Source: Stenopsyche tienmushanensis
Taxonomy: Eukaryota > Arthropoda > Insecta > Trichoptera > Stenopsychidae
Direction of reading: 5' to 3'
DNA length: 64,000 nt
NCBI GenBank assembly: GCA_008973525.1
Contig: WACJ01000502.1
Span: forward strand, 2,914,001-2,978,000
Part shown: positions 1,650 to 64,000 of the stretch, in pieces
How positions within the stretch are numbered: position 1 is the first letter of the stretch
Layout of the letters: each line of letters begins with the position of its first letter
Notes under the pieces: generated by a model
Told to the model about the DNA's origin: nothing
Seen by the model: the letters and a program-made list of their open reading frames with translations, nothing else
The model's database searches: none
Translations under genes and position numbers: made by a program

Positions 1650-1848
1650 TACCTTATACTCATACAAATCCACTTATCTGTCAGTACCGTCGCAGCGTGT
1701 ATGAAGCTTGTACATAAATAAATAAACACTGTCGATAGCAAACAATACTCGGTAATTCAAGTAAATATAAAAAATACATATAAAAATGCTCTTTCTGATT
1801 CACTTGAATTCGCTCGCAAATAGGCGATCGTCCTACCATACAGGTTAA
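1650..1848 (-). repeat. TTAA-B-like MITE copy
   Basis: Read on the minus strand it starts with TTAACCTGTATGG, then GATCGCC and GAGCGAATTC, a block close to the start of the copy at 35158. It continues with CAGAAAGAGCA, the core (CTATCGACAGTG, TTATTTATTTATGTACAAGC, CACGCTGCG) and ATAAGTGGATTTGTATGAG. It is shorter than the complete TTAA-B copies at 37267 and 61455. It has no coding capacity. Confidence 0.6.
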
Positions 1849-2068
1849 TTGAGGAGCTTTTATTTTGGATATAATATCAGTAGCACAAGATGAATTTATC
1901 CTGAATTTATACAAATTATTCGCCACTCATATATTATAGTGACTGTGCCAATAGCCAATAGATTGAAATGAAATTTTAGTAATGCCTACAGGAGAGTTTG
2001 CTGCATCGATATATCTAAGCATAACAGTGGTTTTTAATCTGTAGTGCTTGTATCGACAAAAAAAATTA

Positions 2069-2290
2069 TTGACCCTTTGCGGTCCTATGTCGAGTCTGGC
2101 TCGACATTTTGTTTCTACATTTTTTCCCCATTCAGATTTAAAATCAAGTGATTTTATTTTGCAGTATCGTGTTAGGGACAGTATTTGGAAAGGAATATTG
2201 GTTTTTATGATCCTTCATAGTGTTTCGCTCACCTGCTAGAGATACAAAGGAAAGGGGCTGTTGCCCGGATAAAATCCTAAAACACAGGCA
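2069..2290 (+). repeat. TTAA-C MITE, one terminus
   Basis: It begins TTGACCCTTTGCGGTCC (a decayed TTAA end), followed by the small inverted repeat ATGTCGAGTCTGGCTCGACA, and extends to CCTAAAACACAGG. The same roughly 225-bp sequence recurs inverted at 20470-20694 and 38090-38307. In the 36683-38307 copy both TTAACYYTTTGCGGTCC ends are present, so this is a short non-autonomous element probably mobilised by a TTAA-targeting (piggyBac-type) transposase. The second end of this copy was not found. Confidence 0.65.
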
Positions 2291-2454
2291 GTGACTCTTA
2301 ACGCGCGCTTTCGTGAACATCTCCGATCAAACTTACGATAAATGGATAACAGACATAAATAAAAATATAAATTAACACACCAATAAATCGTAAGGATAAC
2401 ATTCATCATTTTATTGTTCTATATAAAAAATATATTTGAATTTGTTTATTTGAT

Positions 2455-3131
2455 GTAGGGGGGATCCTAAGGGTAAGTTTGTTTGGTTCTGCGTGTTTGT
2501 CGGCCATTTTGTTCAGTCACAGTAAATTCTTCCGATGGAGAAGTCATCGTGCATTCCCGCTACCTCCCGTCCGTGAAAGTTCTGCACAGTCATCCGTTTT
2601 TTGATATTGCAGAAAAATATTGTAGCTAATATTTATCAGAAGCTCGTGGAAGTTCATGTTAGTGATGTGATGTCACGAAAGTCGACAACATGTCACGAAA
2701 TAATGGAAGAGTGGAAGACCATCAGTGATTTCTGATGTATTTGTGCAAAAAAATAAAAAACAAATGTAAAATGACCGGCGTATGATGCTTGATGACCATC
2801 GCGAAAAATTTCCTGGCATTTATCGAAGTCTTCTTGATGATATTGTATCGGAAAAAATTGGTTACAATAAATTGTGTGCGATATGGGTGTCCAGAATGTT
2901 TACACAGGAGCACCATCAAAATCGCGTGACCATCGCACGTGAATTTTCGGAATCGTTTTGCACAGAAGGGAAAAGCTTTTTTGAATTCAATCGTGACGGG
3001 AGATGAGATCTAGATGTGTACATTATATCCCAAAATCCAAAAACACAATCCAAAAAGAGCTCGCGGCGGAGGTCTATGACACTGGCATACATAAATGTTA
3101 CGTTACACCTTACTTTCTGGATGACCCTCAT
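2455..3131 (+). pseudogene. Mariner transposase remnant (family A)
   Basis: A decayed and internally deleted mariner element. The left end is near GGGGGATCCTAAGGGTAAGT and the right end is TACTTTCTGGATGACCCTC, an imperfect inverted pair. The reading from the ATG at 2535 gives part of the N-terminal DNA-binding region (VANIYQKLVEV) but soon hits a stop. Residues at 2782-3006 (SLLDDIVSEKIGYNKLCAIW then VSRMFTQEHHQNRV) match the linker region just before the catalytic domain of mariner transposases. The catalytic block is nearly all missing and there are several frame breaks, so it cannot be active. Relatives are at 29380-31254 and 45298-46112, which share TTTGTTCAGTCACAGTAA near the 5' end. Confidence 0.8.
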
Positions 3132-3139
3132 AGATCATA

Positions 3140-4090
3140 ATGATTTATGTCAGTATGATAATTTCTTTATTCTTAAGCTTACAACATAATTAGCGTGAAG
3201 GAATGTTCCCATGATTATTGTTATAATAACGGATTTTACAACTCACGTTGTGTCACAGCGTCCGACCAATTAGTGCCTCGTTCGCGTCACGGGTTTTCAC
3301 GGACACAGGAAGCATCCCGTCAAATCCCGTCATCCGTCACAATCTCACCACATAAATTAATTATATTATCGCGGTGCCGTACAACATAATCTAGTGCGTT
3401 ACAGAAGACCGTGCCGCGTAATTTGTATGCAAATACCAGTCGGAAATACGTCACGGGCGCGATATCGTCGAAAAATGTCAACGGGTGGGAAAAAAAACGG
3501 TTACGTGTCCATTTATTCAACCTGGTCCGTGAGCATTCAGCGATGCCTTTCTGTGAATCTTTATTGAATAAAAATACAAGATGAGACGGGTCATGAATCG
3601 GGAGATCGGGATGCTGTAACCGCTCATCAGTACGGAGATCACGTTTCATCCGTACAAAAACAAATCGCACTTCCCACACCAGATATCTTACTTTCGCATG
3701 ATATCTGAAAGGGGAGATCAATAGCTAAGGGTCCCGAAAGGACTAACATACGTACGACCCGGATGTGACTTTTCCGGGAATTAATTTTAAGGCCTACATT
3801 GCGCAATGAATTACATATGTCATCCTACTGCGATGACACAACTTTAAAATACTTACATGCACTGTCATCGCTGTTATTGTGGTTTTATTATCCATTTTTG
3901 TATAGTTTTGCATTGTTGCCGTCAGATATGATGCTTTTATTGCTTCAATGCATGCAGCAATTGTGTTCATTACGTCAATCTTTATCCTTGTTTTCCGCAA
4001 TAGTTCCATTAGGTATAATTGCCTTCATTTTGCAATACCGTTTGCTGTGTAAACATCCGAATCATTATAAAAAAATAATTGAATGAATGT
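3140..4090. other. Non-coding stretch with one long open frame
   Basis: No known element was recognised. The minus strand is open for 133 codons at 3320-3721, in sequence richer in GC than its surroundings (many CGTCAC/CCCGTC words). The translation shows no domain I know, no signal peptide and no membrane segment. It could be an exon or chance; I lean to chance. The region 3799-4086 also has a short open frame without features. Confidence 0.3.
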
Positions 4091-4094
4091 GTTT

Positions 4095-4364
4095 AATTGG
4101 ATTGTATGTCCACAAAAATCCAATTTTATATCAGGACCGCGCAGCATGAGTAAAGCTTGTATATCAATAAATGAACCTTAACACTATTGATAGCGCATAA
4201 TTAATTTATTCACTTAAACATAAACAATAGACGTGTATTCTTTCAGTTTTAGTAGCAAAATAATACATTTGTTGAAGCTTGAAATCGATTAATCGCAAGA
4301 ATGCTATTTCTGTTTCGTCTGAATCCGATCGCCAATATGCGATCATACTCATCAAAGGGTCAAT
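4095..4364 (-). repeat. TTAA-A-related MITE copy
   Basis: On the minus strand it starts TTGACCCTTTGATGAG, then GATCGCATATTGGCGATC, a 5' module ending TCGATTTCAAGC, then the core (CTATCAATAGTGTTAAGG, TTCATTTATTGATATACAAG, TGCTGCGCGGTCCTG). The 5' module is like that at 17365-17470 and unlike that of the 22827 and 60035 copies, although the core is the same. Non-coding. Confidence 0.65.
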
Positions 4365-13000: not shown

Positions 13001-13004
13001 ACCT

Positions 13005-13389
13005 CGCACATTGAGTGCAGAGATTAGTGAATCAGGGACAGAGGCGGTTGTCTTGCGTTTCGTACAACGATGGTGAAGTCATGCTATAAAGGAACCCCTA
13101 CACGTACACAGTTTTACGAACACAAACAATCGCTTGTATTTTTACAAAGGAAAACAATGTTTTAACGAACCGGTTGAAAAGCATTAGGTATAGGGTCTTC
13201 TTAGGTCGTCGGCAGTCTTTTTAAAATCATTTAAAATCAACGCTATTATGGGGTCTAACAATATCAACAGTGTGCGGTCCTGAGATAAAGTGGATTTGTG
13301 TGGACGATAAGTAAAACATATGAACATATTCATATGTTTAACATAGAAGAGAACTCAATTTAAAATTAATTCACTAATTTAAGCATTAA
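13005..13389 (+). repeat. TTAA-A MITE, 5'-truncated copy
   Basis: It carries the TTAA-A 5' module (GCACATTGAGTGCAGAGATT, GTCTTGCGTTTCG, CCCCTACACGTACACAG) and then a shortened core. CAATATCAACAGTGT is joined directly to GCGGTCCTGAGA, so about 50 bp of the core is deleted. It continues GTGTGGACGATAAG and ends AACTCAATTTAAAATTAATT, CACTAATTTAAGCATTAA. Only the right TTAA end is visible. Confidence 0.65.
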
Positions 13390-13614: not shown

Positions 13615-14068
13615 GGCCCAACAACAACAACAGTGTTTGTGTTCATTTATTGATATACAAGCTTTATTCAGGTTGCGCGGTCCTGAGAGAAATTAGTTTT
13701 GTGTGGACGATAAGTGGACCTGTGGGTAATCCTGCGGTAAGCAGTTGGACTCGTAACTCAATCATCTTGCGTTCAAATCAATAGTATTTAAGTAACTATT
13801 TATTCTAGATAGAGAGAGATCTGGTTGCAAGAAGGACGACTTCCCGCAGCCAAGGCTAACAAACGACTCTTTATGGCTCCCGCCTCCTGCGCGTCACTAC
13901 CCAATCGGCAACGGTGCACGCGCAAAAAGCAATCGGTCGGTATGTAGGTGTAATGTCTCCATTGGGCGACAAGAGATGGCGCTGTTAACATAACACATTG
14001 CACTTGAAGAGAGACGGAAGATTAAGTTAGAATTAAATATGCTCAGATTAACAGCGCTAAAGGGTTAA
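13615..14068 (+). repeat. TTAA-A related repeat with tRNA-like segment
   Basis: It contains the core (CAACAGTGTTTGTGTTC, ATTTATTGATATACAAGC, TTGCGCGGTCCTGAGAG, GTGTGGACGATAAGTGGAC) and then, instead of the ATACGAATATAGC tail, a tRNA-like block (separate entry). A CTCCTGCGCGTCAC/GAGAGACGGAAGAT block follows, also found at 27728-27905, and then GCGCTAAAGGGTTAA at 14054-14068. The sequence beyond that TTAA is also shared with 25384 onward, so the TTAA may be inside a larger duplicated unit rather than a true end. Confidence 0.6.
13715..13785 (+). repeat. tRNA-derived (SINE-like) sequence
   Basis: The order GGTAATCCTGCGGTAAGC (D-arm and A-box-like), TTGGACTCGTAACTCAA (anticodon-arm-like, loop CTCGTAA, anticodon CGT) and GCGTTCAAATC (B-box and T-loop-like) is that of a tRNA gene. 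Stems are imperfect, so it is not a working tRNA. Other copies are at 25225-25285 (plus) and 20781-20837 (minus). A tRNA-derived SINE is the likely origin. Confidence 0.55.
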
Positions 14069-16830: not shown

Positions 16831-17364
16831 GTACGTTAAATGCATGATTCATCTCGGGAACTGACTTATTCGAACTTGATGATACACTATTTAACAATGA
16901 AACATAACGTTAAAGGGATTAAAAGTGTAGATGAGGTTGTTCGTAACTGATATCAAAGTTAAATGCAATTAAAAAACTTCCAACAGAGTATGATACAATA
17001 AAAATGCACGACGTTTTTAGACAGCGATAAAGCATTTGATGCAACAAAACCAAAATGAATGTGTTTTTTGTTGTTTGTTTGTCGCGTATGCGTTCCTATA
17101 CTATTCATCCGATTGCAGTTAAACATTGGTGAGTTGTTGTATGTACACTCGTAAATGATATAGAATTAATATATTAGTAGTTTATTTACCCAATTTTTTT
17201 TTTGCGAGACGTTTCGCGGATGTATCATGTTGTAGTTATACAAGCATATTAGGTTTTAAAGTCATCATTCGTTTCAATATTTCACGATCTCAATTCGCAT
17301 TTTGTGAAATTTGTCCGTATTCGGTTAAAAACCATTAAGTATAATAAATAGTATCAGCTCAAAC

Positions 17365-17565
17365 TTATCGATTTCAAGCTTTAACAAATGCATTATTTTA
17401 TTACTAAAACTGAAGGCACACGTGTGTATTGTTTATGTTTACGCAAAGTAATGAACGAATATTGTGTGCTATCAACAGTGTTAAGGTTTATTTATTGATA
17501 TACAATATTCACACACGCTGCGCGCTCTTGATGGAAGAGTTGATTTGTGTGGACGATTGTGAAAC
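17365..17565 (+). repeat. TTAA-A-related MITE fragment
   Basis: It shares ATCGATTTCAAGC, ACAAATGCATTATTTTA and CTAAAACTGAAGG with the minus copy at 4095-4364. The core follows (GTGTGCTATCAACAGTGTTA, TTTATTTATTGATATACAA, ACGCTGCGCGCTC, GTGTGGACGATTGTG). No clear TTAA ends were seen. It includes most of a 137-codon open frame that I regard as accidental. Confidence 0.6.
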
Positions 17566-20780: not shown

Positions 20781-20837
20781 TTTAGAAACCCAACATCATT
20801 GAGTTACGAGTCCAACCGTTTAGCCGTGGGACTACGT
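20781..20837 (-). repeat. tRNA-derived (SINE-like) sequence, third copy
   Basis: On the minus strand: GTAGTCCCACGGCTAAACGG, TTGGACTCGTAACTCAA, then TTGGGTTTCTAAACCAA, which can form a T-arm. The anticodon-like loop is CTCGTAA. It is not beside a TTAA-A core, which shows that the tRNA-like sequence also exists independently. Confidence 0.5.
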
Positions 20838-21224
20838 ACAAGTATTAACGCTATACTTAATTAACAAATGTATGTCTGTCTGTTCTTTCTACAATATTGT
20901 AACAAATGATCGATCCAATTCAATTTTTGAATTCTTTAAGATCCATACTATCAAAATTTAACGACTTTTTAATGTTATCAAATTGAAATGGCAGTCTCAT
21001 GTGATATTATCCCATATTATTTTTAAAGTCTGTTTAGTATTGCGGGGCTATAAATCGTTATTACTAGAACATTAATCATATTTATCTCCATCTTCAGCTG
21101 CACTCAAATGATCGTTCATATTGAAACGGTCGTTGTGTATGATATCTTCATCTATATGGTGTTCAATAGATATTTTTTACTTCGAAAATAGCACGAAGTG
21201 AAATTTAAATACAGAGGGTTTTCT

Positions 21225-22820: not shown

Positions 22821-23154
22821 CTAGTTTTATCCTATTGACGAGGAATCACGCATATGCTGCGATCGTACTCGAATGATACAGAAAAAGTATTTTCGCACAT
22901 TGAATGCGAGATTAGTGAATCGGAGACAGAGACGGATGTCTTGCGTTTCATCATACACTCGTATATCAATGGCGAGGTCGTGCTGTAAGAGTACCCCAAC
23001 ACGTACACAGTTTTACGAACACAGTGCAAAATAGAGGGTCATTACATCAATTATCAATAGATGACGACAAAATAAACATTAAAATTATAAAGAGATTTAT
23101 CCGCATCTCCTTGAATACCTTTTACACATTAAGTATGTGGTTTTATTAGAATTA

Positions 23155-23326
23155 CAGTGAAACCTCGATTTTACGTTTTCCAAGGGACCCTGAAAAAAAA
23201 CGGTAATTGCGGGAAACGGTGAATGCGGGAAAGCTTCAAATAATAATAGTTTGACGGGACTATAAAAAATGAACGGTCCATCCGGGAAAACGTATTATGC
23301 GGGAACGGTTTATCGAGGTTCCACTG
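23155..23326. mobile_element. Pogo/Tigger-type MITE, complete, 172 bp
   Basis: The ends are CAGTGAAACCTCGATTTTAC and GTTTATCGAGGTTCCACTG, inverted and imperfect, flanked by TA at 23153-23154 and 23327-23328. The inside holds repeated GCGGGAAACGGT-type words. The uninterrupted site is visible in the TTAA-A copy at the window end (reverse complement of about 63680-63705: TTAGAATCATAATAAATAGT), which supports a real insertion with a TA duplication. Confidence 0.85.
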
Positions 23327-24012
23327 TATAATAAATAGTAGAAAAAGCCACATAAATCAATTATATACTTAAAACTCAGTCTGGTACCAAAGTGATTATA
23401 TTTGAAAAGCTATTATGGGCCCCAAAAATATCAACAGTGTTAAGGTTCATTTGTTGATATACAAACTTTATTCAGGCTGCGCGGTCCTGACATAAATTGG
23501 TTTTGTGTGAACGATAGACAGTGACCCACCTCTTACCCGAGCTGTTTATTGGTCCCGCTATTCGGGACCATGCCAGCCCGCTCAACAAAAGTGCACCCAA
23601 GGTGCAAAACCTGAAATTATACTGTCTGCGAGGACCCACTCTTTCTCAACACCGATGGCCACTTACGCTCTAAGCGCGGGGGGAAGCTAGCTAGGTACTT
23701 GAATTTATCAATTAGACCTAACTAAAATATATACATAGATATTGAAAAAGAAAAAAATAAAATAAAATAATAATAATAAAATAAATAAATAAATGAATAA
23801 ATAAAATTTAAAAAAAAAATAAAATAAAAAAAAAAAATAAAAGAAAGAAGTATAATAGATATATATATATACATTATGGGAGAGGGGGGGGTTGCCTAGT
23901 CTCGCTCGCGACGCTCTTGGCGCGAGCCACCTGATTGAGCTAGCCGCTGGGGGTGCTATCATGATCGATGGGATCATAGTAGCCCCCAGGAACGCATTTT
24001 TGTCCAAAAATG

Positions 24013-25202: not shown

Positions 25203-25224
25203 TGTGTGAACGATAAGTGAACCT

Positions 25225-25285: not shown

Positions 25286-25383
25286 AGGATATGTGGCTGG
25301 CGTCCACATTTTTAAAACACACATTCGCTATGAAAAACCATGTAAAATTGATTAGCAGTAGTCTCTAATAATTAAGGGGTTAA

Positions 25384-25639: not shown

Positions 25640-25725
25640 AAACCTTATATTGATATACAAACTTGATGCACGCTGCGCGATCTTGAGAGAAAAATAAAAG
25701 ACTTACGAATATAGCATCTACGTTT
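25640..25725 (+). repeat. Fragment of the TTAA-A core
   Basis: TATTGATATACAAACTTGAT, GCACGCTGCGCGATCTTGAG and ACTTACGAATATAGCATC match the 3' core and tail of the TTAA-A family. No ends are visible. Confidence 0.6.
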
Positions 25726-25739
25726 AACTTAATTATCAA

Positions 25740-31639: not shown

Positions 31640-31870
31640 GCATCGAAAGGCAAAACGGATTCGGGTGATAAAAAAGGAGTATTTTCGAACATTGAGTGCT
31701 GAGATTAGTGAATCGGGGACGTCTCATCTTACATTCGTACATCGATGTGAAGATTGTGTTGTAAAGGTCCCCCTACACATCTGAATATAATTAAATATTA
31801 CGAACGCCAATAATCAGTATATCAATAAAAGAATAAAATATTTTAACGTTTTTTATTGAGTGCAAAATAG
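31640..31870 (+). repeat. TTAA-A 5' module fragment
   Basis: GAACATTGAGTGCTGAGATT, AGTGAATCGGGGACG, TACATCGATG and CCCCCTACACATCTG match the TTAA-A 5' module. The core is missing and a GTGCAAAATAGAGTCAT block, as at 23025, ends it. Confidence 0.6.
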
Positions 31871-31874
31871 AGTC

Positions 31875-35157: not shown

Positions 35158-35485
35158 TTAAACTGTGTGGCAGGATGATCGCCAATGTGCGAGCAAATAT
35201 CAGTGATTCAGAAAGAGCACTCTTGTACATTGAAGTTGGAGAGAGACAGAGACGGATAAAACGTAGCGCAATTCGGTAACTGTGCATGCGAGACAGAGAC
35301 GGAGAGCTTCCTGCGTACATCGCACAATTGTTAACCCAAATTTATCGACTAATAATGATGTGTGAATGATATATTGAATCGATTTCAAGTGTATTTTTAT
35401 GTTTACTTAAATAATTGACCGAATGTTTTGTGCTATCGACAGTTGTATATTTATTTAACTCGTTCGTCGCTGCGTCCACCAGATA
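35158..35485 (+). repeat. TTAA-B MITE copy
   Basis: It starts TTAAACTGTGTGGCAGG, then GATCGCCAATGTGCGAGC, ATTCAGAAAGAGCACTCTTG, GAGACAGAGACGG and CGATTTCAAGTGTATTTTTA, ending in the core (GTGCTATCGACAGTTG, TTTATTTAACTCG, CGCTGCG). It aligns with the first two thirds of 37267-37822. The right end was not found. It begins immediately after the pogo-like remnant. Confidence 0.65.
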
Positions 35486-35489
35486 TGCG

Positions 35490-36680
35490 TGTCTTCGAAG
35501 TCCGATTCTTCGAAAAGCGAATCCAGTGTCTCATTGTTACGTATTTCTATAACGACTTGAAAATGTTAACTTTATGAACATCTTTCTATAATGTCTTCCT
35601 TATGCTTCTTCTTTCTTCTGTTTACGCTCCGAATATCGGTTCCGTGAGAAACAACACCGAATGGCGGACAAGCAAATATAGAATCTTAGACTATGAAGAA
35701 TTCAAATTATCTCACGACTCAAAGGGTTTATATAAAATAGTAGAACTATCTTTCAATAAGATTAAATTACAAAATTTAAATTGAATTTCTAAAAAAAGTC
35801 TTGATCCTATAATGTATACATATCTACATCAAATAATATTTAAATATGTGCATACTTTTGAAGTTGTCGATTTAGAACTAGTTATCCCTAATGTTCTGAG
35901 CTGAAGAATGTTATCCTCAAAACAAATTGAAAGGCTTCGGGGGTTGTTGCTTGTCTATCCATGCTATTTGCAAACTGTGAACAGACATCCGCTCCAAATG
36001 CAATCTTGAACATGTTTCTGGCATTTGGACATTTTTGAGACTACATAAGTTATGTGCAGCAAATCACCACACAGTGAGATCTACCTCAACAAAAAATCGG
36101 TTAATCTTGGAAAGCATCCCGATTTAAATTTACGACCGCCGACAGCTTATCGCTGAATCCCATAACTATTCCGTGTGACAGCCCTGGAGTTATGGCGGCT
36201 GATAAAAAGGAGGGAATTCGTTATGGCAGTGCGTCGGATATCAGTCGAGGAGTTATCAGTTGTAATAATTGAGGCCCACGGAACACAGATGTGGAGCATC
36301 TGCGTTGTAAGGGTGTGCCGCACCGCGTGGGCCGACACGTGCTAATGCTCGAGCTTTGCAGTAAAATGACTGCAAAGAAGCAAAAATAGACGCCACTTGC
36401 GAATACGTGACTGCTTCCGGCCACAAATGAACACATCGAATGCCAGATGCCAATACACCAACATAACTGAACAGTCAACAGCTGCCATCGAGACAATTAA
36501 TCCTAATGATAATAACGAAAATGTACTGAAAAAATCAACAAATACAATTTTCAAACAATGGATAACACTCTTAATTTTGTAAATTATGCCGAGCCAATTT
36601 GACGCAATTTGATAAGGTTTGTAAGAACGATATTTACAAAATTCAAAAGTGAACATATTACAATGAAAATAGATCAGTAA
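35490..36680. other. Non-coding stretch, nothing recognised
   Basis: Several overlapping minus-strand open frames of 61-104 codons lie at 36147-36656, none with a known domain. They overlap in different frames, which argues against real coding. No repeat shared with the rest of the window was noticed. Confidence 0.4.
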
Positions 36681-36771
36681 TATTAACCTTTTGCGGTCCC
36701 TAAATATTAGGTTGTCTCATAAATTTCTTTCGACAAAATTCTGACAAAATTGGGCTACATCAAACGTTCAG

Positions 36772-37266: not shown

Positions 37267-37822
37267 TTAACCTTTTCGTGAGTACTTACGGAAATATCCG
37301 TTTTGACCTTCACTATTCAGAAAGAGCACTCTTGTGCATTGAAGCTCCGAGGCGGACAGAGACAAAGAGAACTTAGCGCAGTTCGGGAGACTGAGACGGA
37401 TAGCTTCTTCATATGCATCGCATGATCGTATAGATCGTTAAGCCCAAATTTATCCACTTATAATGATTTCGATTTCAAGTGTGTTATTTGTTTACGCAAA
37501 GAAACGACCGAATATTGTGTGTTATCGAGAGTGTTTGTTTATTTAACTGCTTGCTGTTCTTCGCTGCGCGTTGAATGAGTCTTTGTCCAATTATCATTTC
37601 CTTCTAAAGGAGGAGCACTTGAATCGATTTTTTGTGCATTGTTTATGTAAAGAAATGAAGTGGTATTGTATGCACTATCAAGTGCTCATTTACAATTGAC
37701 TCTGCCTCGAATTGAAGATTATCTTACGCTGATTAGGAGCTGACAGAAAGTAATCGGTGTAAAGCGATTATGACATCAACGACTTCATCGATTTTAAATT
37801 TGCTCACTTACGAAAAGGTTAA
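37267..37822 (+). mobile_element. TTAA-B MITE, complete, inside the mariner
   Basis: The ends are TTAACCTTTTCGTGAGT and ACTTACGAAAAGGTTAA, with TTAA duplicated at 37267-37270 and 37819-37822. The uninterrupted sequence is seen in the other family B mariner at 30966-30985 (GTACCTTGATCAATATTTTG), so exactly one four-base site was duplicated. The element holds a GATTCAGAAAGAGC-type 5' module, the shared core (TATTGTGTGTTATCGAGAG, TTCGCTGCGCG), and a 3' part with TCATTTCCTTCTAAAGGAGG and GGTGTAAAGCGATTATGAC. TTAA targeting is the mark of piggyBac-superfamily transposases. Non-coding. Confidence 0.9.
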
Positions 37823-38690: not shown

Positions 38691-38879
38691 TTCGTTTCTT
38701 TCATCATTGGCACATTTACTAAAGGATAAGCTCTTTCGAAACGTAACTGAATTCGAATATTTGTACATATTTTGATTCAAAGCTAGAATTTGTTCGATTG
38801 TTCGTGTTATCTTGCAAATAGGAGTTTGTTTGAATCATTTAGATATTCGCATCATTCTTATCGTTGATCAATTTTGCTA

Positions 38880-38985
38880 TTCCCATTTGATTCTTCTGGA
38901 ATGGCGTCATTAGCCGAGTATCATCACTTCTTTGCAAAATCTACAACAGGCTTGCACGGTAACCCTGTCCTTTTATTTTTGCAAC
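38880..38985 (+). repeat. Diverged relative of the solo LTR 3' end
   Basis: AGCCGAGTATCATCAC and GGCTTGCACGGTAACCCTGT parallel AACCGAGTATCGTTAC and GGCTTGCACGGCAACCCTGT at 30797-30865, in the same order. Short and diverged; probably a fragment of a related LTR. Confidence 0.4.
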
Positions 38986-39039
38986 ACATTGATAGGCAAA
39001 AATAACTGAACAACAGAAAGCGTTGAAAAAATGTTGAAA

Positions 39040-39180
39040 ATTAAGAAATACTCCGAAGTAATGAACGAATGTGTGCTATCAACAGTATTAAGGTTCATTT
39101 ATTGAGTCTGGTTCATTATCGAGCTTGTTACATGCTGCGGCGGAGGTGACAGAAAAGTGGATTTACATTAGAGCGTAGCG
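39040..39180 (+). repeat. Fragment of the TTAA-A/B core
   Basis: GAAGTAATGAACGAATGTGT, GCTATCAACAGTATTAAGG, TTCATTTATTGAG and CATGCTGCGGCGG match the shared core and its upstream module. No TTAA ends were identified. Confidence 0.6.
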
Positions 39181-39189
39181 TGTATGTTC

Positions 39190-40610
39190 TCAGATTTGAA
39201 AGGGTTAAACAATATAATATTGCAATGTATACCATGTTTGAAATTGTACCACCTTCTACTAAAACAAAATGGCTTATATCATTTGAAAAGTCGTCACGCG
39301 TGAACATTATACGGTGTTGACATATAGGCGTCGCTTTTGGATGACCCTCCCGTTTTGTACGAATTCTTCGAGGCGATTAAGCAATAATGCAAAACTATTT
39401 ATTACGCTTGGCTTTAGTAAGCTTTTGGAAATCATAAAAATAGATCCGTTCATTTTCGAGCATATATTCTACATCGGTTTATCTTTTGTCGCGCGAGAAA
39501 GCCATCAGACGAGACTCGAAAAACATTTTCGATGGCCTTTTATGGTTTCAAATGTATCCTTTTATTGAGACGATATTTAATTGTCTGGAAGTCTTTTTTC
39601 TTCGCATCATCCCTTCGATATTTTTATGTATTGCATTTTTTTTGCCGCCGGTTTGATATATTGTATACACTTTTGTGCGGGTAATATTTCTAAGGAAAAT
39701 ACTAGGGATTCTTTGAAAGATATTAAATATGAAAATAGAGTATCTATATAGTTTATATTCTGAGAATTTATTGCGTTTACCTGAGCACTGTTCTACATCC
39801 TTATTGAACGGGTATTTTCTGATCGATCATTTACTGAGAATTTCGCACAAAGGCTACATACAATTGACAATTTGTTCTTCCTACATTATTTACATTGAAA
39901 TAGTGATATTTAAAATATGTTTTAGGGGTGGATTTGGGATAATTATCGCGACAATACACGCGTGTAGGCTAAAGTTTGGGTATATTCAGGGTCGATTCGA
40001 TCCTGTCGATTTTGATTTAAATCGAACTAAAATGGGGATGTCATGGTATGGAGTACCAAAATTATACAAGAACACGTCGAGCGTCTTGTAGTCTTATGCT
40101 CGACTGATTATTTGAATGTTTGTATAGGGCCCGTTGAAGGTTCAAGTCTGCAGATGAAATGGAGGTGAGGTTGTACAGATAAACAAATATTTTCCGTCCT
40201 CGAAACGGCTTACAAAATTAAATTGAAGTTGTCGAAATTTGATCCTGTCTTAAATGAATAAAATTGAATTTAATAATAAGGAAATTTAATTAGCGCCAGG
40301 ATCAGTCCAGAACGCCATTTAGTCATCGCCAGACTTAGTTCCGTCAAATCCAGAAATAGTCGTCTGTTCAGCGAACTATCCGGTGCATAAACAAACTACC
40401 CGGTGTTTACGAAGTGCTTTTAATAGCTATTTTTATTAATCGTGAAAATCGGTGTTTATGAACCTCGAAATTGTTTTTTTGAACGTTTAACGGCCGATTC
40501 GGTAACGTTTATGAGAAAATCGTTAGTTTTTGTGGTGCACCACAATAGAGCCGAATAGACTATTTATTGCATATTGCTTGCACTGCTGACGCCATAAATC
40601 GTTTATTATA
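39190..40610. other. Non-coding stretch, nothing recognised
   Basis: Plus-strand frames of 84 and 120 codons at 39314-39568 and 39729-40091 have no recognisable motifs. The sequence around 40300-40560 is a little richer in GC without a visible element. Confidence 0.35.
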
Positions 40611-40904: not shown

Positions 40905-41060
40905 TTTCTTCGCAAAAAAAGATACAGAAAGCGTATTCTAGCACATTAAGTGCGGAGATTAGTGAATCGGAGACAGAGACGATCGTCTTGCGTTTCATAA
41001 TACACTGGTACATCGATGGCAAGGCCGTATTGCAAAGATACCCGTACACATACAATATTA
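40905..41060 (+). repeat. TTAA-A 5' module fragment
   Basis: AGCACATTAAGTGCGGAGAT, AGTGAATCGGAGACAGAGAC, CGTCTTGCGTTTCATAATAC and CATCGATGGCAAGG match the TTAA-A 5' module. It abuts the mariner fragment and lacks the core. Confidence 0.65.
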
Positions 41061-41064
41061 TTTA

Positions 41065-41760
41065 TTTAAATGATTACTTCAAACATTACATTTACAATAT
41101 ATTTTAATCATTTGTCACGTTTCAATTAAATTTCCAACCAAATTTCAAAGAATCAATTTCATTGCCCCTACACGTCTAAATATTATCAAATTCAAAGTAA
41201 TATTTGCGACCTTTTTAATTCATTATTTTCCTGCATTTATCGTTTGATTCATCCGATCCCTACGGAAGCAATGTATTATATTGAGAATTCTCCCTAGTAT
41301 ATAATGGGGATTGTATTTATTTTGCTCTTGTATTTTATGATTTTTGGTTTAACCCGACACGCTCATAGAATAAAATAAGGATACAATAGGGACTGTTAAG
41401 CTTTCAGGTAGAACAATTTGCCCGACCCAGATTCTTTGAACATCTTTGTTGTTGCAACTTTAAGCTATCATTAAAGTTGTAATTTTTTTGCTGGAGGAGC
41501 TCTAAAGCGAAACAAAGCGTTTTATGCGGAGTACGATTTTTTTATTTTTATTTCGGCATCTCTTAATATTTTTAATATTGCATCAAGGATAATGGAATAG
41601 GGTAGCTTTACGGCAGTTAACGACAAAAACGCCCCAAGGAAACCACATGATAAACAAATGATCATGCCATATGGTGTAATAAGCGCAAAAATAAATAATT
41701 TTAACTCTAATTCCTAAGTAGATTTAGTATACATTATTTAAATATAAATGCTATTTATTG
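41065..41760. other. Non-coding stretch, nothing recognised
   Basis: AT-rich with no open frame of note and no repeat shared with the rest of the window that I could see. Confidence 0.45.
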
Positions 41761-41763
41761 ATT

Positions 41764-43634
41764 TTAACACATAACGTGCGGGGGTTTTTTGCGTGCGTCT
41801 GCCTCTTGAGCAATCTTTCAATGCCGCGCGCAAAAAAATGCAAAATTTGAAGTTCCACAATATGCAGTCGACCTCGTAAGCGATTATTTCAAAGACCGAT
41901 ATGTCCATCACAACGAAACGGACCTGACGAGAAGACTGGAGATGGGCGTCCCGCAGGGGTCCATTCTGGGACCAACCCTCTGGAACGTATTCTACAACAG
42001 TCTCCTAAGCATGGCACTACCTGCAAGAGCAGAACTCATTGCCTTTGCAGACGACGTCGCTCTGTTGATGACGGCTCGACATCCATGGGAAGTGGATGCG
42101 GGATAATCACCCGCAGTTGGCGGCCGGAAAAAAGGAAGCAATGATATGCAGCCGAGAAGACCGAGGGTCGAGCAGCTTATTATTGGAGGACACGAGGCGG
42201 AATACAGCAAAACGCTGAGATACCTCGGGATCCTCATGGATAACAAACACATAGAAGAAGCTGCACAGAAAACGCAGAAGGTAGCCAGCGAGCTATGACG
42301 GCTCATGCCCAACATTGGAGGGTCAAAGCCGTGCAGAAGACGTACCATAGACGAAGTAATACACTCGATCTTTCTGTATGGAGTCCCGATATGGCACAAG
42401 TCGCTCAGATGCGATACCAACAGAAAGAAGCTCGCCAGGGTCCAGCGACAGGAAGAGCTCCGATTCACCGCAGCGTACAGGACAGTGTCCGAAGAAGCGG
42501 TGCTGGTGATCGCTGGAATACCCCGCTGGACTTCCAGGCAAATAAGAGGGCCTTGGACCACGAAGATCCTAAAGAGCGCAACGAATATGACCAGAAACTG
42601 AGGGAAGCCTGGCAACGGAGATGGGATCAGTCCAGCAAGGGAAGATGGACCCATCGACTTATCCCGGTCATAAGTCGGTAGAGGGCCCGGGAGCACGGTG
42701 AAACAGCCTACCGCTTGACTCAGGTGCTCACTGGGCATGGATGCTTCGGTGCGTACCTGAAGCGGATTGGTAAAGAACCATCCGCAACGTGCCCCACTGC
42801 CAAACGAAGTCGACGACGCAGAGCACACCATCATTGGTTGTGAGGCTTGGGCACCCCAAGAGAAAACTGCTGAAACAAGCACTTGGGGTAGTCGAGCTCA
42901 ACGTTGACATCATGGTCCACAGCATGATGGGAAGCAAGAAGACCTGGGACCTTTGGCGCAACTACGTAGAAGAGATTCTGAGCGCCAAAGAGGGCAGTGA
43001 AAGAGAGAGACGCAGAGCGCAACAGAATAGGACCAATCAGCTAAGGCCAGACTACCTGTCTTCCTGAAGAAATTTGTAAAACAATACCAGGGGGCCAGAG
43101 AAGGTCAAGGGAGGGGTTAAGTGGGCAGGAACGAGTTAATCGTTAATCGTCAATCCCACACTACCCAGAATGGGTGTCTTTCGAAGATTCCCCTCCTACA
43201 TGAAAAAAAAAGTAATCAATATGTATTGAAATGAATTGTGAATCGATTTATGAACGCCACCCAAAAATCATGTTTTTGGTTATATTAGCTAATAAATTAG
43301 ATGTTTTTGCTTCGCTGATAACCTTCTTAGAAATAATTTATGATCTAAAAATGTTTATTTGTATTAAGTTCGAGGGTTATTTCCAGGATACCATTCTCAG
43401 GATAGTTCACATTAAATTATGAAGGCTTGACATGAAAATAAAATACATTACAAATACATATACATTTTTATAAAATGTGTTCCATTTTATAAAAAATAAT
43501 TTCAATAAATCCATTAATAATAGGTCAATTAATGTGAAAAATGTGCAAAAACATCGCGCAATAACATTTTAGTCGATGTTAATCAAAAGACAGCGTAATT
43601 CATAAAAATATACTTCCCGCTTATAAAGTGTTAA
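41764..43634 (+). mobile_element. TTAA-D MITE, host of a nested R1-like element
   Basis: The left end is TTAACACATAACGTGCGGGG and the right end, reverse complemented, TTAACACTTTATAAGCGGGA, with TTAA at 41764-41767 and 43631-43634. The right 200 bp (AATTCATAAAAATATACTTC, TTTCAATAAATCCATTA, AATAACATTTTAGTCGATGT) matches 54340-54514, and the left end matches 53870, so the two are copies of one family. An R1-like retroelement lies inside. The ends resemble those of the piggyBac element at 49015-51869. Confidence 0.7.
41840..43211 (+). pseudogene. 5'-truncated R1-like non-LTR retrotransposon, decayed
   Basis: It begins inside the reverse transcriptase: DYFKDRYVHHNETDLTRRLE, then GVPQGSILGPTLWN (41950-41990) and FADDVALL with the catalytic aspartates at 42049-42054. 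A stop in the DAG* region (42105), frameshifts and further stops follow. The C-terminal part reads LTQVLTGHGCFGAYLKRIGK near 42720 and a decayed zinc-knuckle region (CPTA... DAEHTIIGCEAW in shifted frames, 42790-42845). The tail ends in a short poly(A) at 43203-43211. The open frames on the minus strand (296 codons) are antisense shadows. It differs from the 24 kb copy in having a poly(A) end and in the FADD box, so it belongs to another R1-clade lineage. Inactive. Confidence 0.8.
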
Positions 43635-49014: not shown

Positions 49015-51869
49015 TTAACACATTGAAGACCGTACGCATAAATCTGTGCGCCTCGAAAATTTGGATCAATGGCCCGTACGCACAGATTTGTGCGCGACGA
49101 ACTACACACATTAAAAAAATCACAGCACTGCTGCTAAACATTTTTAACCTGTTTCAGAGATGTAGCTTGTTTTATATATATATAAAGATTTTAAAATATA
49201 ATTTTAAAAAAATTACGCGTAATATATTCCACACTATGGACAATCGTAATTGAAACTAAAACAATATTTTATTTGAGGTTTTAACCAAAATTAAAATTTA
49301 CCGAGCCGATTCTAAACATTTTTAAACTACATAACATATATCATAAGTATAATATATGCATGTATGAAGGTTTAAAAAGCGAATATAAAAAATACGCGTA
49401 ATATATTACACGACTTGTAAATACCAGGGACCGGAACCGAACCAACATTTTTTTAGGTTTTTTTTCGGTTCTTTTCTAAATACAATCATAATTCCACCTA
49501 TTACCTTTTTATTAGAGAATGAAAACCAAAATGATTATTATATCTTATATAAAAAAAAATAAAGACATTTTGACACTTGCGCTTGCAGTGCAATTGAATT
49601 CTGACATTTGGGTGATCTTAGGTTTTTTTTTCTGCTTTTTGTAACGATTTTGCTAGATCCGCCCTTCAGTTGGGGTGGGGGAGTATTGTGTAAGCTTTCT
49701 AAACCATTAAAACTTCACGCCTTTGTTTGCATCTTGTCCAATAATGCAAGCCAATGGTCAAAAAAAATATTTGGACAAATCGTATAACATAATTGGAGGA
49801 AAGGAGACAGTACTGCACAACAAATTTTCGATAATACATATTACTTAGTGTTCGGGTTATAGTAGTGGAATTATGTTCTCGGTATAGGACACTTCGCGTC
49901 GTGATTCTAGATTTTGATAAATTTGGTTTAAAAAACTTGTGGAAGCTGAATAACTTTATTGTGAAAATTTGAATACCTTCATAATGGATAACGATCAATC
50001 ACATTTGGAAGAAAATTACGAAGATTGTCTTTCAGACATACCTGATGATTATTATGAAGATAGTGACAGTGATGATGAGCTTTCGAACTCAGAAGTTCGC
50101 TTACCGCGATCACGAGTAATGAATCTTCAAGAATCTTCTGATTCAGAACCCGATACTCCAGATGTACCTTTAGATTGGTCAGAAATTGATACAGCAAGAA
50201 ATAATCAAAATTTTGAAGCCACTCCTGGAATCAATATCTATCCAGATAATCGTGAATCGGTGAAAAGTGTTGCATCGCTGTTTATTGGTGATGATATATT
50301 TAAAACAATCAGCGAAGAGACAAATAAATATTATGTGAAAAATAAGGACAAGTATAAAATCGTGGCTCATACAGCAAAATGGTTTGATGTGACTGTCAGA
50401 GAACTGAAAATATTTTTTGGCCTTATTATAATTACGGGATTAGTACGCAAAAAATTAATTATACGAATACTGGTCAACTAATCCGCGAATGGAAACTCCA
50501 TATTTCCGAAAAAGAATGAGTCGGAATAGATTTAAGCAAATTCTGACAGTTTTGCATTTTTCCGACAACGATTTAATAACAGGAGATTCGGAACGGCTTG
50601 CGAAGGTGCAAAATATAATAGATTATTTTCAAAAAAAATTCCAACAAGTATATATTCCTACCCAGAACTTGTCTTTAGATGAGGGGATGATACCATGGCG
50701 AGGACGTCTAAAGTTTAGAGTGTACAATCCGATGAAAATTATCAAATACGGAATTTTGAATAGAATGCTTTGCGAATCTAAAACGGGTTACATATGTAAT
50801 TTTAAATTATATTGTGGAATTGGGACGAATTTAAAAGATACAATAACCGCAGTTCTAAGGCCGTACTTAAATAAATGGTACAATATATTTGCTGACAATT
50901 TTTATAACAGTGTAGAATTGGCAAACTATTTGTATAATTTAAAAACGCGAATTTGTGGGACCATTCGTGCAAACCGGGGTATACCAGATATTTTAAAAAG
51001 CCCAAAACTGAATATTTTCCAATCTATTTTTCGCAGAAAGGGTGATGTTTTGGTTCAAGTGTGGAAAACCCACAAAAAAAGAGACGTGCGAATGATTTCC
51101 ACAATCCATCAAGCAGAAGTCGTCGATACGGGAAGAACAGATAGAAAAACCGGACTACCGATTAAAAAACCACGATGCATATTTCCAATGAAGTAAACAA
51201 AAGCTTTATATTTTATAAAGTATTTAAAAATATATCATTTTTGGCGTGTATTGTTGTTTCTAGAAATATGTTCATAAGCATCATCATAAATGAAACACCA
51301 AGAATAAAAGGAAACCTTTTTAACAATATATCCCTTAAAAAATGTGAAAGGGGCAGATCTTTTGAAATGCAATTACAAAGGACAACATTATTTATTGTTT
51401 CCTGTCTTCGAAAGAATTTAACAAATATCGGTAACTATTATTGAATAGAAAAATATCACAATCAGCATTTATTTTACGATATATTTTAGATGGCGATTAA
51501 TTTGCCAATTGAGAATCACTGAATGACCTTGATATGGACAAACTCAACTAAGTTTATGAATAAATTTGATTATAACTTGTTAATTGTTTTTTAATTCAAA
51601 AAAATTGTGAAAATAATAGTTTTTTTTTTTTTTTTTTTCAAATACTTCTCTCTTACACAAACCCAAGGTTCAGTACCAATGATTTAGTAACGTTTCCTTA
51701 TACTTATGAGTATCCCGGAGACGAAGCTAAAAAATTTATTAATTTACACCAACTGGTTTCGAAGTTATATCAATTTAAAAAAAACATAAGATTTCTCGGA
51801 ATAATCCTGAAATTCGCCCGGTCCCAGGTATAAGTTTTAGGAAATCATTAGCGGTCAACAAAGTGTTAA
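49015..51869 (+). mobile_element. piggyBac-superfamily transposon, nearly complete
   Basis: The left end TTAACACATTGAAGACCG (49015-49032) and right end CGGTCAACAAAGTGTTAA (51852-51869) are inverted and imperfect, with TTAA at both outer edges. The length of 2855 bp is normal for the superfamily. The left subterminal region has the pair GCATAAATCTGTGCGC and CGCACAGATTTGTGCGCG (49039-49096), likely transposase-binding sites. The transposase lies in the middle on the plus strand and is broken. Confidence 0.8.
49984..51196 (+). pseudogene. piggyBac transposase (DDE_Tnp_1_7 type), one frameshift and lost C-terminus
   Basis: The start is ATG at 49984. The first frame runs to 50481. It has an acidic N-terminal region (DDYYEDSDSDDELSN) typical of these proteins, then SLFIGDDIFKTISEETNKYY and FFGLIIITGLV. 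A one-base change near 50455 shifts the frame; coding resumes with YEYWSTNPRMETPYFRKRMS (from 50462) and goes to a stop at 51194. Counted from the M at 50489, the three catalytic aspartates are at residue 64 (SLDEGM), 136 (ADNFYNS) and 199 (RDVRMIST). After KTGLPIKKPRCI the frame ends early. Decayed remains of the C-terminal helices (FKNISFLACIVVSRNMFISI) are readable to 51440. The cysteine-rich domain that binds the ends is not seen. The enzyme is therefore not functional as it stands. Confidence 0.9.
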
Positions 51870-60034: not shown

Positions 60035-60546
60035 TTAACCCGTAGATGAGTAATCACGCATAAGTGCATTCGGACTCGAGTGATACAGAAAGAACATTTT
60101 GGCACATTGAGTGCGGAGATTAGTGAATCTGAGAAAGAGACGGGTGTCTTGCGTCTCATTATATACTCGTACATCGATAGCAAGTTCGTGCTGTAAAGGT
60201 ACCCATACACGTCGTCACATCAATTATCAACAGATGACGACAATATAAAAAATAGAAATATAATAGAATTGATCAATATCCGATTGAAAATCATCAGATA
60301 TGGAATCTTTATAGACTCTTGTTTTTATTCTTAAAAGCATAATAAATATTTTGGGGTCCAACAATATCAACAGTGTTAAGGTTCATTTGTTGATATACAC
60401 GCATTATTCACGCTCCGCGGCTCTGAGAGAAAAATGGATTTATATGAACGATAAGTGGCGGTCATACGAATATAGCATTTATGATATAAATTTAGAACAA
60501 TTTCAAAGAAATATATACATGAAGTTTAAAAACACTAATTGATTAA
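60035..60546 (+). mobile_element. TTAA-A MITE, full-length but decayed ends
   Basis: The left end is TTAACCCGTAGATGAG and the right end CACTAATTGATTAA, with TTAA at 60035-60038 and 60543-60546. It holds the full order of the family: TAATCACGCATAAGTG, GCACATTGAGTGCGGAGATT, GTCTTGCGTCTC, ACATCAATTATCAACAGATG, core (CAATATCAACAGTGTTAAGG, TTGATATACACGC, GCTCCGCGGCTCTGAG), GAACGATAAGTGG and ATACGAATATAGC. It has no insertions and no tRNA-like block, and serves as the reference copy. Confidence 0.75.
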
Positions 60547-60811: not shown

Positions 60812-60959
60812 GTCCAATAATATCAACAGTGTTAAGGTTCATTTATTGATATACAAACTTCGTTTACGCTGCGCGTTCCTTAGATAAAAGTGGATATGTG
60901 TGGATGATAAATGGCGGATATACGAATATACGAATATAACTCACTAATCAAAGGTTTAA
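60812..60959 (+). repeat. TTAA-A core and right end
   Basis: CAATATCAACAGTGTTAAGG, TTCATTTATTGATATACAAA, TACGCTGCGCGTTCC, GTGTGGATGATAAATGG, CGAATATAACTCACTAATCA and AAGGTTTAA form the right half of a TTAA-A element. The 5' module is absent. Confidence 0.7.
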
Positions 60960-61450: not shown

Positions 61451-61454
61451 TTGG

Positions 61455-61937
61455 TTAACCTTTTCGTTAGTGAGCAAATTTAAAATCGATGAAGTTGTTG
61501 ATGTCATAATCGCTTTACACCCATTACTTTCTGTCAACTCCTGTCAGCATAAGACAATCTTCAATTCGAGGCAGGGTCAATTGTAAATACACATTTGACA
61601 GCATACAAGATCATGTCATTTCTTTATATAAATAATGCACAAAAAATCGATTCATTTGCTCCTCCTTTAGAAGGAAATGATAATTGGACAAATACTCATT
61701 CAACACACAGCGGATAATGGCAATCAGTTAAAAAAATCATTATAAATCGATAAATTTGGGCTTAACGATCTATACAATCAAGCGATGCATGCGATGAAGC
61801 TCTCCATCTCAGTCTCCCGAACTGCGCTAAGTTCTCTCTGTCTCTGTCTGTCTCCGAGCTTCAATGTGCAAGAGTGCTCTTTCTGAATAGTGGAGGGGGT
61901 TACGGAGGGTCTCCGATAGTACTTCCGTAGGGGTTAA
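61455..61937 (-). mobile_element. TTAA-B MITE, complete inverted copy
   Basis: TTAA lies at 61455-61458 and 61934-61937. One end is TTAACCTTTTCGTTAGTGAG; the other, reverse complemented, TTAACCCCTACGGAAGTAC. It matches 37267-37822 in reverse through GGTGTAAAGCGATTATGAC, TCATTTCCTTCTAAAGGAGG, CGATCTATACAATCAAGCG and GCACTCTTGCACATTGAAGC (given in the 37 kb orientation or its complement). It is shorter by about 70 bp through small deletions in the core. Confidence 0.8.
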
Positions 61938-61939
61938 GA

Positions 61940-62915
61940 TATTCAATTGACTTTCGTCGAAAATTCGATTATTAGTGTATTAGAGTGTCTACGTGATGAA
62001 ATCTTCAGCAACCGAGCGTGCTTGCTGCAACGTCCGCGCAATTAAATTTGATTCTGCACACCCTAATGATATAGCCTTCCAAGAAGTGAATTTACATAAG
62101 CGATTTGTGTGTTAATTGCGAAATAAAAATTGCGCCATCATTTAAAACGGTCGCTGAATCGCATCGGTTTCCGCCGTCCACGTCAGCCTAATCTTCATTG
62201 CTAGATTGAACACACAAACGAGACAATGAACTCACAACATTTCAAGCACAATCATACAATAAAGGAGAGGATGGTATCAAATTACCTTTCGTTTGAACTC
62301 CACAATGAAAGAACCCGAGGGGTTTATTCCCGATGAATGGGAGGCACATGTGAAATGAATCGTTTATTATATATATATTTTTTATCGTATCGCATGTATT
62401 TTGAGTTTGTGTCCATGGCAGAGAGGTATTCGTCGGGCTCGTGAAAGATTTATTCGAGGACAGCAGGAGGTTCTCGAGGACCTTTGCTGGATGTAAGGCG
62501 CAAAGTTTCCTTTATTTTCCTTTTTGATGTCTGAGTGTCACATTGTGAGAGGACTTTCAGTCAACTGTGTTCGCCTCGAGGGTCCTCTTCACGGTCTTCA
62601 CGTTGTTAAGTCAGAGACTTTCTTCTGGGTAATAACTGTAATTGGTGCTGAAAATGACAAAAAATTAACGAGTAGTTACGGTTATTCTTCTAAACTTTCC
62701 CTAGTGTTGTACAAGAACACTCGTACGTGCAGTCTCAAAGGGATACTTATTTATTTATTTTTGAATTGCAACAAATTGGACGGAATTAATTTGTACTATC
62801 AAACACATATTCCTACTCTTAAAGTATGGAAAATAGCCTAATCAATAAAAGCCAAGCCAAGAAATCAGGTCAGCGGTCATATTTAAATAGAATCACTTTT
62901 ATTAGCACTCTGAGA
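61940..62915. other. Non-coding stretch, nothing recognised
   Basis: A 105-codon plus-strand frame at 62524-62841 has an even composition but no known domain. Splice-like or promoter-like signals were not convincing. Confidence 0.35.
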
Positions 62916-62919
62916 TTAA

Positions 62920-63370
62920 ATGAATTGAGTGCTGAAAATCGGAGACAGAGATGGGTGTCTTGCATCTCATCATACACTCATATATCGACGAAAAGGTACC
63001 GCTACACATTTAATACTTTCAGATATATTTTTATATGCTCTAACGCTTGGTGTTTTTGGTATGCAAAAACATTTGAGCTTCATTATCATTATCAACATTA
63101 AGACAAGATTTATGGTGGGACATAACAACTCTTTCAAACTCAAAAATAACTAGAAACCATAACAAAAATATATCATTCATAATTGCAAGTGTAGTCTCAA
63201 TTTTGCTATGCAAAACAATGTTTTTCGCAGGATGATCGAACGCTTCAAAATCTTCCAAAGAAATAAATGAATATTATGTGCTATCAATAGTGTTAAGGTT
63301 TATTTATTGATATACAAGTTTGTTACACGCTGCGCGGAGCTGAGAGATAAATTGGTTTAAATATGAACAC
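62920..63370 (+). repeat. TTAA-A-related copy, interior diverged
   Basis: The 5' module is seen at 62925-63010 (GAATTGAGTGCTGAAAATCG, GAGACAGAGATGGGTGTCTT, CATCATACACTC) and the core at 63255-63365 (ATTATGTGCTATCAATAGTG, TTTATTTATTGATATACAAG, TTACACGCTGCGCGGAGC). The 250 bp between them do not match other copies, so this is either an old copy or two fragments. Confidence 0.5.
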
Positions 63371-63439
63371 ACTACGCGTATGGAACGGGCTGATATTTTT
63401 TTGCAAAATCACGGTTATAAAGAACAATCTTACTATGGA

Positions 63440-64000
63440 TTAACCCTTTGAATAGTGACTTTATTTTAAATTGAGTTAAATATGGTTGCTATATTCATAT
63501 GTCCACCTCTTATCATCCACACAAATTCAATTTCTTTCAGGACCGCGCAGCGTGAGTGAAGCTTGTATATTAATAAATAACCCTTAACACTGATGACATT
63601 GTTGGTTCCTATGATAGCGTTTTAAATAAAAACACTTTTGATACCAGGCTGAGTTTTAAATATATAATTAATTTATTTGGCTTTCTACTATTTATTATGA
63701 TTCTAAGAAGACCCAATACCTGATGGTCTTCAATCGGATATCGTTCAAATATTGTATTAATTTATAGAAATAGTAGTGATTCTTTGTGTTTTTAATACAT
63801 CTTTAATAACCTTTACAATATTTTAATACTTTAGTTTGAAATAATTACATCAGATTTCACTGCTCGTTATATCAGAGTTAGACTGTATAACTTCAGTTTT
63901 TATATATAAAAAGAAAAGCAATTTTATTTTATTTAGCAAATTTTGATAATCTATTTTACACTACATACGATAGCCATAGCGTCTCGCTATGCAAATTTGC
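63440..64000 (-). mobile_element. TTAA-A MITE, continues past the window end
   Basis: On the minus strand this is the right end of a TTAA-A element: it ends CACTATTCAAAGGGTTAA at 63443-63440. Further in are GATAAGAGGTGGACATATG, CACTCACGCTGCGCGGTCCT, TTATTTATTAATATACAAGC and CAGTGTTAAGG, then AACTCAGCCTGGTATC and AATAAATAGTAGAAAG. The last gives the uninterrupted version of the site occupied by the pogo MITE at 23155. The left end should lie beyond 64000. Confidence 0.75.

What the first reader, a model, noticed from the sequence alone, without database searches (positions are those of the whole stretch)
1650..64000. Modular family of TTAA elements sharing one core but different ends and 5' modules
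At least 15 copies of the core (CAACAGTGTTAAGG ... TTATTGATATAC ... GCTGCGCGG ... GTGGACGATAAG) occur here: near 1700, 4150, 13260, 13640, 17480, 23430, 25655, 35440, 37525, 39080, 60365, 60820, 61720, 63290 and 63560. They are preceded by at least three different 5' modules (as at 60060, 17365, 37290) and followed by at least three different tails (CGAATATAGC, the tRNA-like block, the TTAA-B tail). The element termini differ too (TTAACCCTTTGACGAG, TTAACCTTTTCGTGAG). A stable core with exchanged ends suggests recombination or template switching between MITE families, or capture of the core by several piggyBac lineages. I know of no described family with this layout.
Basis: partly seen in the sequence, partly recalled or inferred. 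Interest (0 to 1): 0.75.

Follow-up and report, generated by a model that had tools for sequence, protein, structure and literature searches.

The report
TTAA elements with exchangeable left ends
The repeats are small non-coding jumping elements that insert at TTAA; most of the apparent 'modules' are leftovers of one old element, but a younger sister family carries several different left ends on nearly the same body, which hints at how such elements change their ends.

Summary
The repeats are real: 15 of 15 listed places match, and a 31-base core piece has 369 exact hits in the genome, 0 for the reversed control. Most of the 'modular' layout is one 922-bp collinear, non-coding, TTAA-ended element, family A. 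Its copies lost different pieces, often an end: of 89 core copies 28 keep the left end, 35 the right, 6 both. Within A the core is not specially conserved. B, C and D are diverged sisters. A, B and C are homologous at left end, core and right end; B's 'different tail' follows a duplicated core. The exception is young family B (40 of 40 scored copies 98-99%). Its left ~45 bp come in at least four versions on one body (divergence 0.241 against at most 0.158 in 77 body windows), including a palindrome that changes yet largely stays paired, and left-end and body alleles occur in all four combinations. Coral CMITEs are a published precedent for the layout. No autonomous parent was found. Most is a new member of a known kind; B's left ends merit follow-up.

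The parts
1661..1848 (-). A/C-like copy: core part matches A 715-844, left end TTAACCTGTATGG near 1848; right end missing
4108..4363 (-). Family A, type II: A 1-69 and 656-847; right end missing
13003..13389 (+). Family A, type I junction, several internal deletions (65-178, 344-402, 495-555, 812-922); right end present
13628..13717 (+). Family A core piece (766-856), followed by the tRNA-like block
17308..17557 (+). Family A, type II: A 482-516 and 646-850; both ends missing
22827..23516 (+). Family A, type I: A 1-178, 414-507, 554-639, 763-851; right end missing
25648..25734 (+). Family A right part (786-893)
31656..31872 (+). Family A left part without core (37-202, 348-427)
35158..35729 (+). 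Family C element (sister of A); left and right ends homologous to A
37267..37822 (+). Family B element, left-end type o1 + palindrome p1
37267..37311 (+). Left-terminal 45 bp of B, the segment that varies between young copies; palindrome ACGGAAATATCCGT at 37288-37301
37626..37822 (+). Second, diverged core and right end of B, homologous to A 706-922
   Evidence: 0 of 500 shuffles; the middle stretch alone 72 of 500
38794..39208 (+). Family D copy; right end TTTGAAAGGGTTAA; 38794 is where similarity between copies starts, not a proven terminus
40921..41191 (+). Family A left and middle pieces without core
60035..60483 (+). Family A, type I: A 1-179, 429-563, 763-881; left end present
60821..60959 (+). 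Family A: 763-872 and 900-922; right end present
61455..61937 (-). Family B element, left-end type o4 + p4; lacks most of the first core
63258..63358 (+). Family A, type II: 739-838
63440..63798 (-). Family A, type I: pieces of 345-922, right end present

Best explanation
These are related non-autonomous, piggyBac-type (TTAA) elements descended from one ancestor laid out as left TIR, subterminal palindrome, CAGAAAGAGCA block, AT-rich interior, core, right TIR. Shown: family A is old and decayed, and its 'modules' are surviving segments of a 922-bp consensus plus one recurrent internal-deletion subfamily (type I). B, C and D are sisters whose cores, and the ends that were compared, are homologous to A's. 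B is young and carries several alternative left-terminal ~45-bp segments on one body. Inferred: copies were moved in trans by a piggyBac transposase; deletions and nested insertions after transposition made most of A's variety; in B the left terminus was replaced in short tracts (from the element's own right TIR or from a neighbouring element's end) while its palindrome was largely kept.
For: Collinearity 146 of 159. Sharp TTAA boundaries in 32 left and 39 right ends, TIR 15 of 17. 54 of 89 core copies lack the right end, so those breaks followed insertion. L110, L114, L115 and L116 keep both ends, each with its own internal deletion. A-B and A-C ends above 1000 of 1000 shuffles. B second core to end above 500 of 500. 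Young B: 40 of 40 scored copies 98-99%. Left block divergence 0.241 against body mean 0.084, maximum 0.158, 0 of 77 windows as high. Palindrome cells paired 77.8%, 0 of 500 shuffles as high. PHI p=0.001 at 30 bp. o1 left end matches the right TIR at 15 of 16, o2 and o3 at 11. L121 has two left ends in tandem.
Against: No autonomous parent or transposase remnant was found. The left ends of A (CCCG) and of B type o2 (CCTG) miss the CC[C/T]T motif. 13 of 159 neighbouring pieces are out of order, which I take as separate insertions without proof. PHI is not significant at 100 and 150 bp, nor for the body alone. The -1 slide of the palindrome has a higher covariation score than the structure itself (0.343 against 0.184). 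Left-end types mostly follow body groups, so some of the pattern is ordinary subfamily divergence. Four combinations can also arise from repeated mutation.
Confidence: 0.7

Rival explanations
1. True modular exchange across all families: the core was captured by several piggyBac lineages through recombination or template switching.
For: Termini differ between families; across families the core is on the whole as well or better conserved than the ends (A-B1 85% core, 74% left, 72% right). B shows left-end reassortment.
Against: A, B and C left and right ends are homologous, B's tail contains its own core, and A copies are collinear.
Confidence: 0.1
2. No exchange in B: the left-end variety is subfamily divergence in a fast-changing palindromic end, plus homoplasy.
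For: Types largely track body groups; PHI not significant at 100-150 bp or for the body alone; palindromes are prone to local rearrangement (recalled).
Against: The left block is more divergent than any of 77 body windows; L142 joins left end p3 to o1-like body alleles at several columns; PHI p=0.001 at 30 bp and 0.026 at 60 bp.
Confidence: 0.25
3. A SINE family with a conserved central domain, tRNA-like heads or tails, and variable 5' parts.
For: Varied flanks around one core are typical of such SINEs (recalled); a tRNA-like stretch follows one core.
Against: TTAA ends with inverted repeats on both sides; the tRNA-like block is not called by ARAGORN or Rfam and lies outside the consensus.
Confidence: 0.02

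Closest known systems
CMITE families of Acropora corals (PMC2872659: abstract, passages, sections 15 and 17)
   Same: TTAA MITEs with different TIRs and a shared interior; the interior is better conserved between families than the TIRs; presumed piggyBac transposase in trans.
   Different: CMITEs are about 100 bp with a 75-base interior; here 375-922 bp and thousands of candidates in one genome. Sequences were not compared, as none were fetched.
Pokey MITEs mPok1 and mPok2 of Daphnia (PMC3849761: passages)
   Same: piggyBac-type, TTAA, lineages with different ITRs, about 750 bp, old copies with few intact ITRs and many indels, tandem insertion at neighbouring TTAA.
   Different: mPok have known autonomous relatives and 90-110 copies; no parent was found here.
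The window's own piggyBac copy, 49015-51869
   Same: Same superfamily by transposase domain and TTAA ends.
   Different: TIR TTAACAC.TTG; no convincing similarity to A (best E 0.056), so not the parent.

Membership tests
piggyBac superfamily (non-autonomous member) | TTAA at both ends | tested here: met
   32 left and 39 right ends of A; B left ends TTAA or near in 29 of 29
piggyBac superfamily (non-autonomous member) | 12-19 bp TIRs with CC[C/T]T terminal motif (definition as in PMC2872659) | tested here: inconclusive
   A: 15 of 17 bp TIR; right end CCCT meets the motif, left consensus CCCG does not. B: right and o1 left CCTT meet it, o2 CCTG and others do not
piggyBac superfamily (non-autonomous member) | Insertion duplicates a single TTAA (empty site) | not tested
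   No second assembly at hand
piggyBac superfamily (non-autonomous member) | Shares ends with a transposase-bearing element | tested here: inconclusive
   None among ten families sampled by flank slices, most without visible ends; by reading the lists no scored end within 5 kb of the 116 scored transposase places; most candidates were not scored
MITE | Short, non-coding, high copy, inverted-repeat ends | tested here: met
   No transposase remnant in A, B, C; 5023 and 5778 first-look candidates for A's ends
MITE | Uniform length | tested here: not met
   A copies with both ends range 375-910 bp; B full copies are nearer uniform, about 534-556 bp
CMITE-like layout | Different TIRs with a shared interior | tested here: met
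CMITE family itself | Same interior sequence | not tested
   CMITE sequences were not fetched

The most novel reading that the evidence does not exclude
In family B the left terminus is an exchangeable cassette: short tracts are copied from the element's own right TIR or from a neighbouring element's end, and the subterminal palindrome is kept by compensatory change because a transposase reads its symmetry, so that one body can pass between transposases.
Probability: 0.3. Interest if true: 0.65.

Novelty: new member of a known kind. Interest (0 to 1): 0.42.

Why it matters
How non-autonomous elements come to have a shared interior and different ends was left open for CMITEs. Young family B offers many recent copies in one genome in which left-end replacement could be caught and dated. 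The decayed family A shows how decay alone can look like modular assembly.

Tried and rejected
Rejected: a SINE with a central domain (TTAA boundaries); the window's own piggyBac as parent; transposase remnants inside A, B or C (D not tested); the tRNA-like block as part of the element.

Led nowhere: flank slices of ten transposase families, of which only one showed clear ends (TTAACCCTTTCCACTCC) and none resembled A or B. tblastn of 120 piggyBac relatives against L001-L088 and the window found only the window copy and one 23-residue match in L073. The Mantel test on A has no power because its positive control fails. Host identity was not determined. 'None within 5 kb' of a transposase was judged by reading the lists, not by script.

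Dropped before counts: 11 of the 100 listed core places were not fetched (of 369 in the genome). Of the 40 scored B copies 30 were fetched; with 2 from the window that is 32, of which L124, L128 and L139 were dropped for want of the left anchor, leaving 29. The ungapped left divergence 0.398 is inflated by a one-base gap and was replaced by the gap-aware 0.241. Overlap at deletions compares BLAST overlap with exact matching, which are not the same measure.
Full report
What is there. The window lies in a 451-Mb, 549-contig genome as C502:2914001-2978000. A 31-base stretch of the core (CAACAGTGTTAAGGTTYATTTATTGATATAC) has 369 exact hits there and the reversed pattern none. I fetched 89 of the 100 places listed.

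Family A is one element, not a set of modules. Iterated pile-ups gave a 922-bp consensus from TTAACCCGTTGATGAGT to CTCACTAATCAAAGGGTTAA. Chained matches make 157 elements in 88 loci and the window, 92 in two or more pieces; 146 of 159 neighbouring same-strand pieces are in consensus order and 13 are not. Conservation stops sharply at TTAA in 32 left and 39 right ends; the ends form an inverted repeat matching at 15 of 17 positions. Type II (CTAT before the core) and type I (AATAT; positions 640-762 replaced by about 14 bases) number 46 and 26 of 89, with 17 other.

How A's variety arose. Of 89 core copies 28 keep the left end, 35 the right and 6 both. A copy without an end should not have moved in that state (inference), so those breaks followed insertion. 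Among 151 junctions with 15 or more missing bases, binned at 6 bp, the type I junction holds 13, one other 3, six hold 2 and the rest 1; the right-hand breakpoint 763 recurs in 27. The eight best left ends (L109-L116) all have a right-end piece downstream; L110, L114, L115 and L116 are compact and each has its own internal deletion, L112 holds about 575 bp of other sequence, and L109 and L113 look like one duplicated locus. The best of 40 scored left ends and 40 scored right ends are 95% and 96% identical to the consensus, out of 5023 and 5778 first-look candidates, so the family looks old. In matches away from the exact 31-mer the core bin is 91.0% identical to the consensus and the other bins 84.6-93.5% (85 matches): the core is not specially stable within A. 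The discordance test cannot be answered on A: left versus right r=0.09, p=0.19 (n=41), but the positive control between two halves of the left part also fails (r=-0.11, p=0.84, n=29). Adjacent segments do correlate after centring (core and tail r=0.14, n=49; 691-768 and right r=0.24, n=45; p=0.0005 each).

Sister families. B, C and D differ from A by roughly 10-28% in the segments compared. Left and right ends of A against B and of A against C score above 1000 of 1000 shuffles. The core of A matches B likewise and C by BLAST (81% over 59 bases). D's right end exceeds its shuffles only just (15.0 against a maximum of 13.5), and its left end was not found. B holds two cores; from the second core to its end it aligns with A 706-922 above 500 of 500 shuffles, though one stretch tested alone does not (72 of 500). 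The 'exchanged tail' of B is thus a duplicated core followed by a homologous right end. A-B1 identity is 85% in the core, 74% at the left end and 72% at the right.

The exception: left ends of young B. The 40 scored B right ends, of 1828 candidates, are 98-99% identical to the query. I fetched 30 and added two window copies; 29 of 32 had the left anchor. On much the same ~430-bp body they carry: TTAACCTTTTCGTGAG-like + ACGGAAATATCCG (10), TTAACCTGTATGG + that palindrome or nearly so (4), TTAACCTCTATGG + CGAAGGGTCTTCG (4), a TTAACCCCTACGG-like group with variants of CGGAGACCCTCCG (10, counting L134 with CCCAGGGCCTGGG), and L142, which joins a TTTTAAGG outer end to the third palindrome. Mean body divergence is 0.028 within the first group and 0.06-0.10 between groups. 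Gap-aware divergence is 0.241 in the left block against a mean of 0.084 and a maximum of 0.158 in 77 sliding body windows. The palindrome largely keeps pairing: 77.8% of cells, 0 of 500 shuffles as high, at most 61.1% when slid, three of six pairs with changes on both sides. Against this, the -1 slide has a higher covariation score (0.343 against 0.184), and the twelve rows were chosen by me as distinct types. Nineteen body columns show all four combinations with the p1 and p3 left ends, in part through L142 and L132. A PHI-type test gives p=0.001 at 30 bp and 0.026 at 60 bp, but 0.35 at 100 bp and 0.93 at 150 bp, and for the body alone 0.32 at 60 bp and 0.96 at 100 bp. The o1 left end matches the right TIR at 15 of 16 positions in typical copies, o2 and o3 at 11. 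The related copy at 1661-1848 has a TTAACCTGTATGG left end, so I infer that o2 is older and that o1 arose by copying from the right end. L121 carries two left ends in tandem, a possible intermediate. These last steps are inference.

Parent. A, B and C hold no transposase remnant while the control is found. The genome is rich in piggyBac transposases: 116 scored of 2193 candidates, 109 of the 116 without a stop inside the match by my count. By reading the lists, none of those 116 lies within 5 kb of the scored ends of A, B or D; most candidates of every kind were not scored. Ten families sampled by flank slices gave no match, and only one showed its ends. The transposase in the window has its own TIR and its best solved relative is piggyBat. 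Assignment to piggyBac therefore rests on TTAA and the end motif, which only some ends meet.

What is known. Coral CMITEs have different TIRs with a shared interior and TTAA ends, and their authors suggested cross-mobilisation (PMC2872659: abstract, passages, sections 15 and 17). Pokey MITEs show two ITR lineages and old copies with few intact ITRs and many indels (PMC3849761: passages). Searches whose listings I read showed no report of left-end replacement on one body in piggyBac MITEs; they cover only the held open-licence library, and I opened only two of the listed papers.

Verdict. The layout is mostly an ordinary, old, decayed TTAA family with diverged sisters. The left-end polymorphism of young B is the part worth following.

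Noticed in passing
window 49015-51869: A piggyBac copy with frameshifted transposase (49984-51193 +) and its own TIR TTAACAC.TTG..GACCG; best solved relative piggyBat.
   Followed up: partly
own genome, contig C93 2047782-2072122: Six DDE_Tnp_1_7 open frames of 560-572 aa on one strand about 4-5 kb apart: looks like a tandem array of piggyBac-derived genes.
   Followed up: no
own genome, one search list: Many apparently intact piggyBac families, one of 617 aa with more than 20 copies of equal or nearly equal score: a genome rich in young piggyBac elements.
   Followed up: partly
window 13700-13787, 25203-25290, 20787-20843: A tRNA-like block shared by three places, twice with the same ~15-base core end in front of it.
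   Followed up: partly
window 24016-25260 (-), 41810-42103 (+), 36745-37209 (+): Reverse transcriptase pieces (PF00078) and a mariner-type transposase piece (PF01359).
   Followed up: no
L109 and L113: Two A copies on different contigs share about nine bases of left flank and the same inner insert, mariner-like by eye, so probably a duplicated locus.
   Followed up: no
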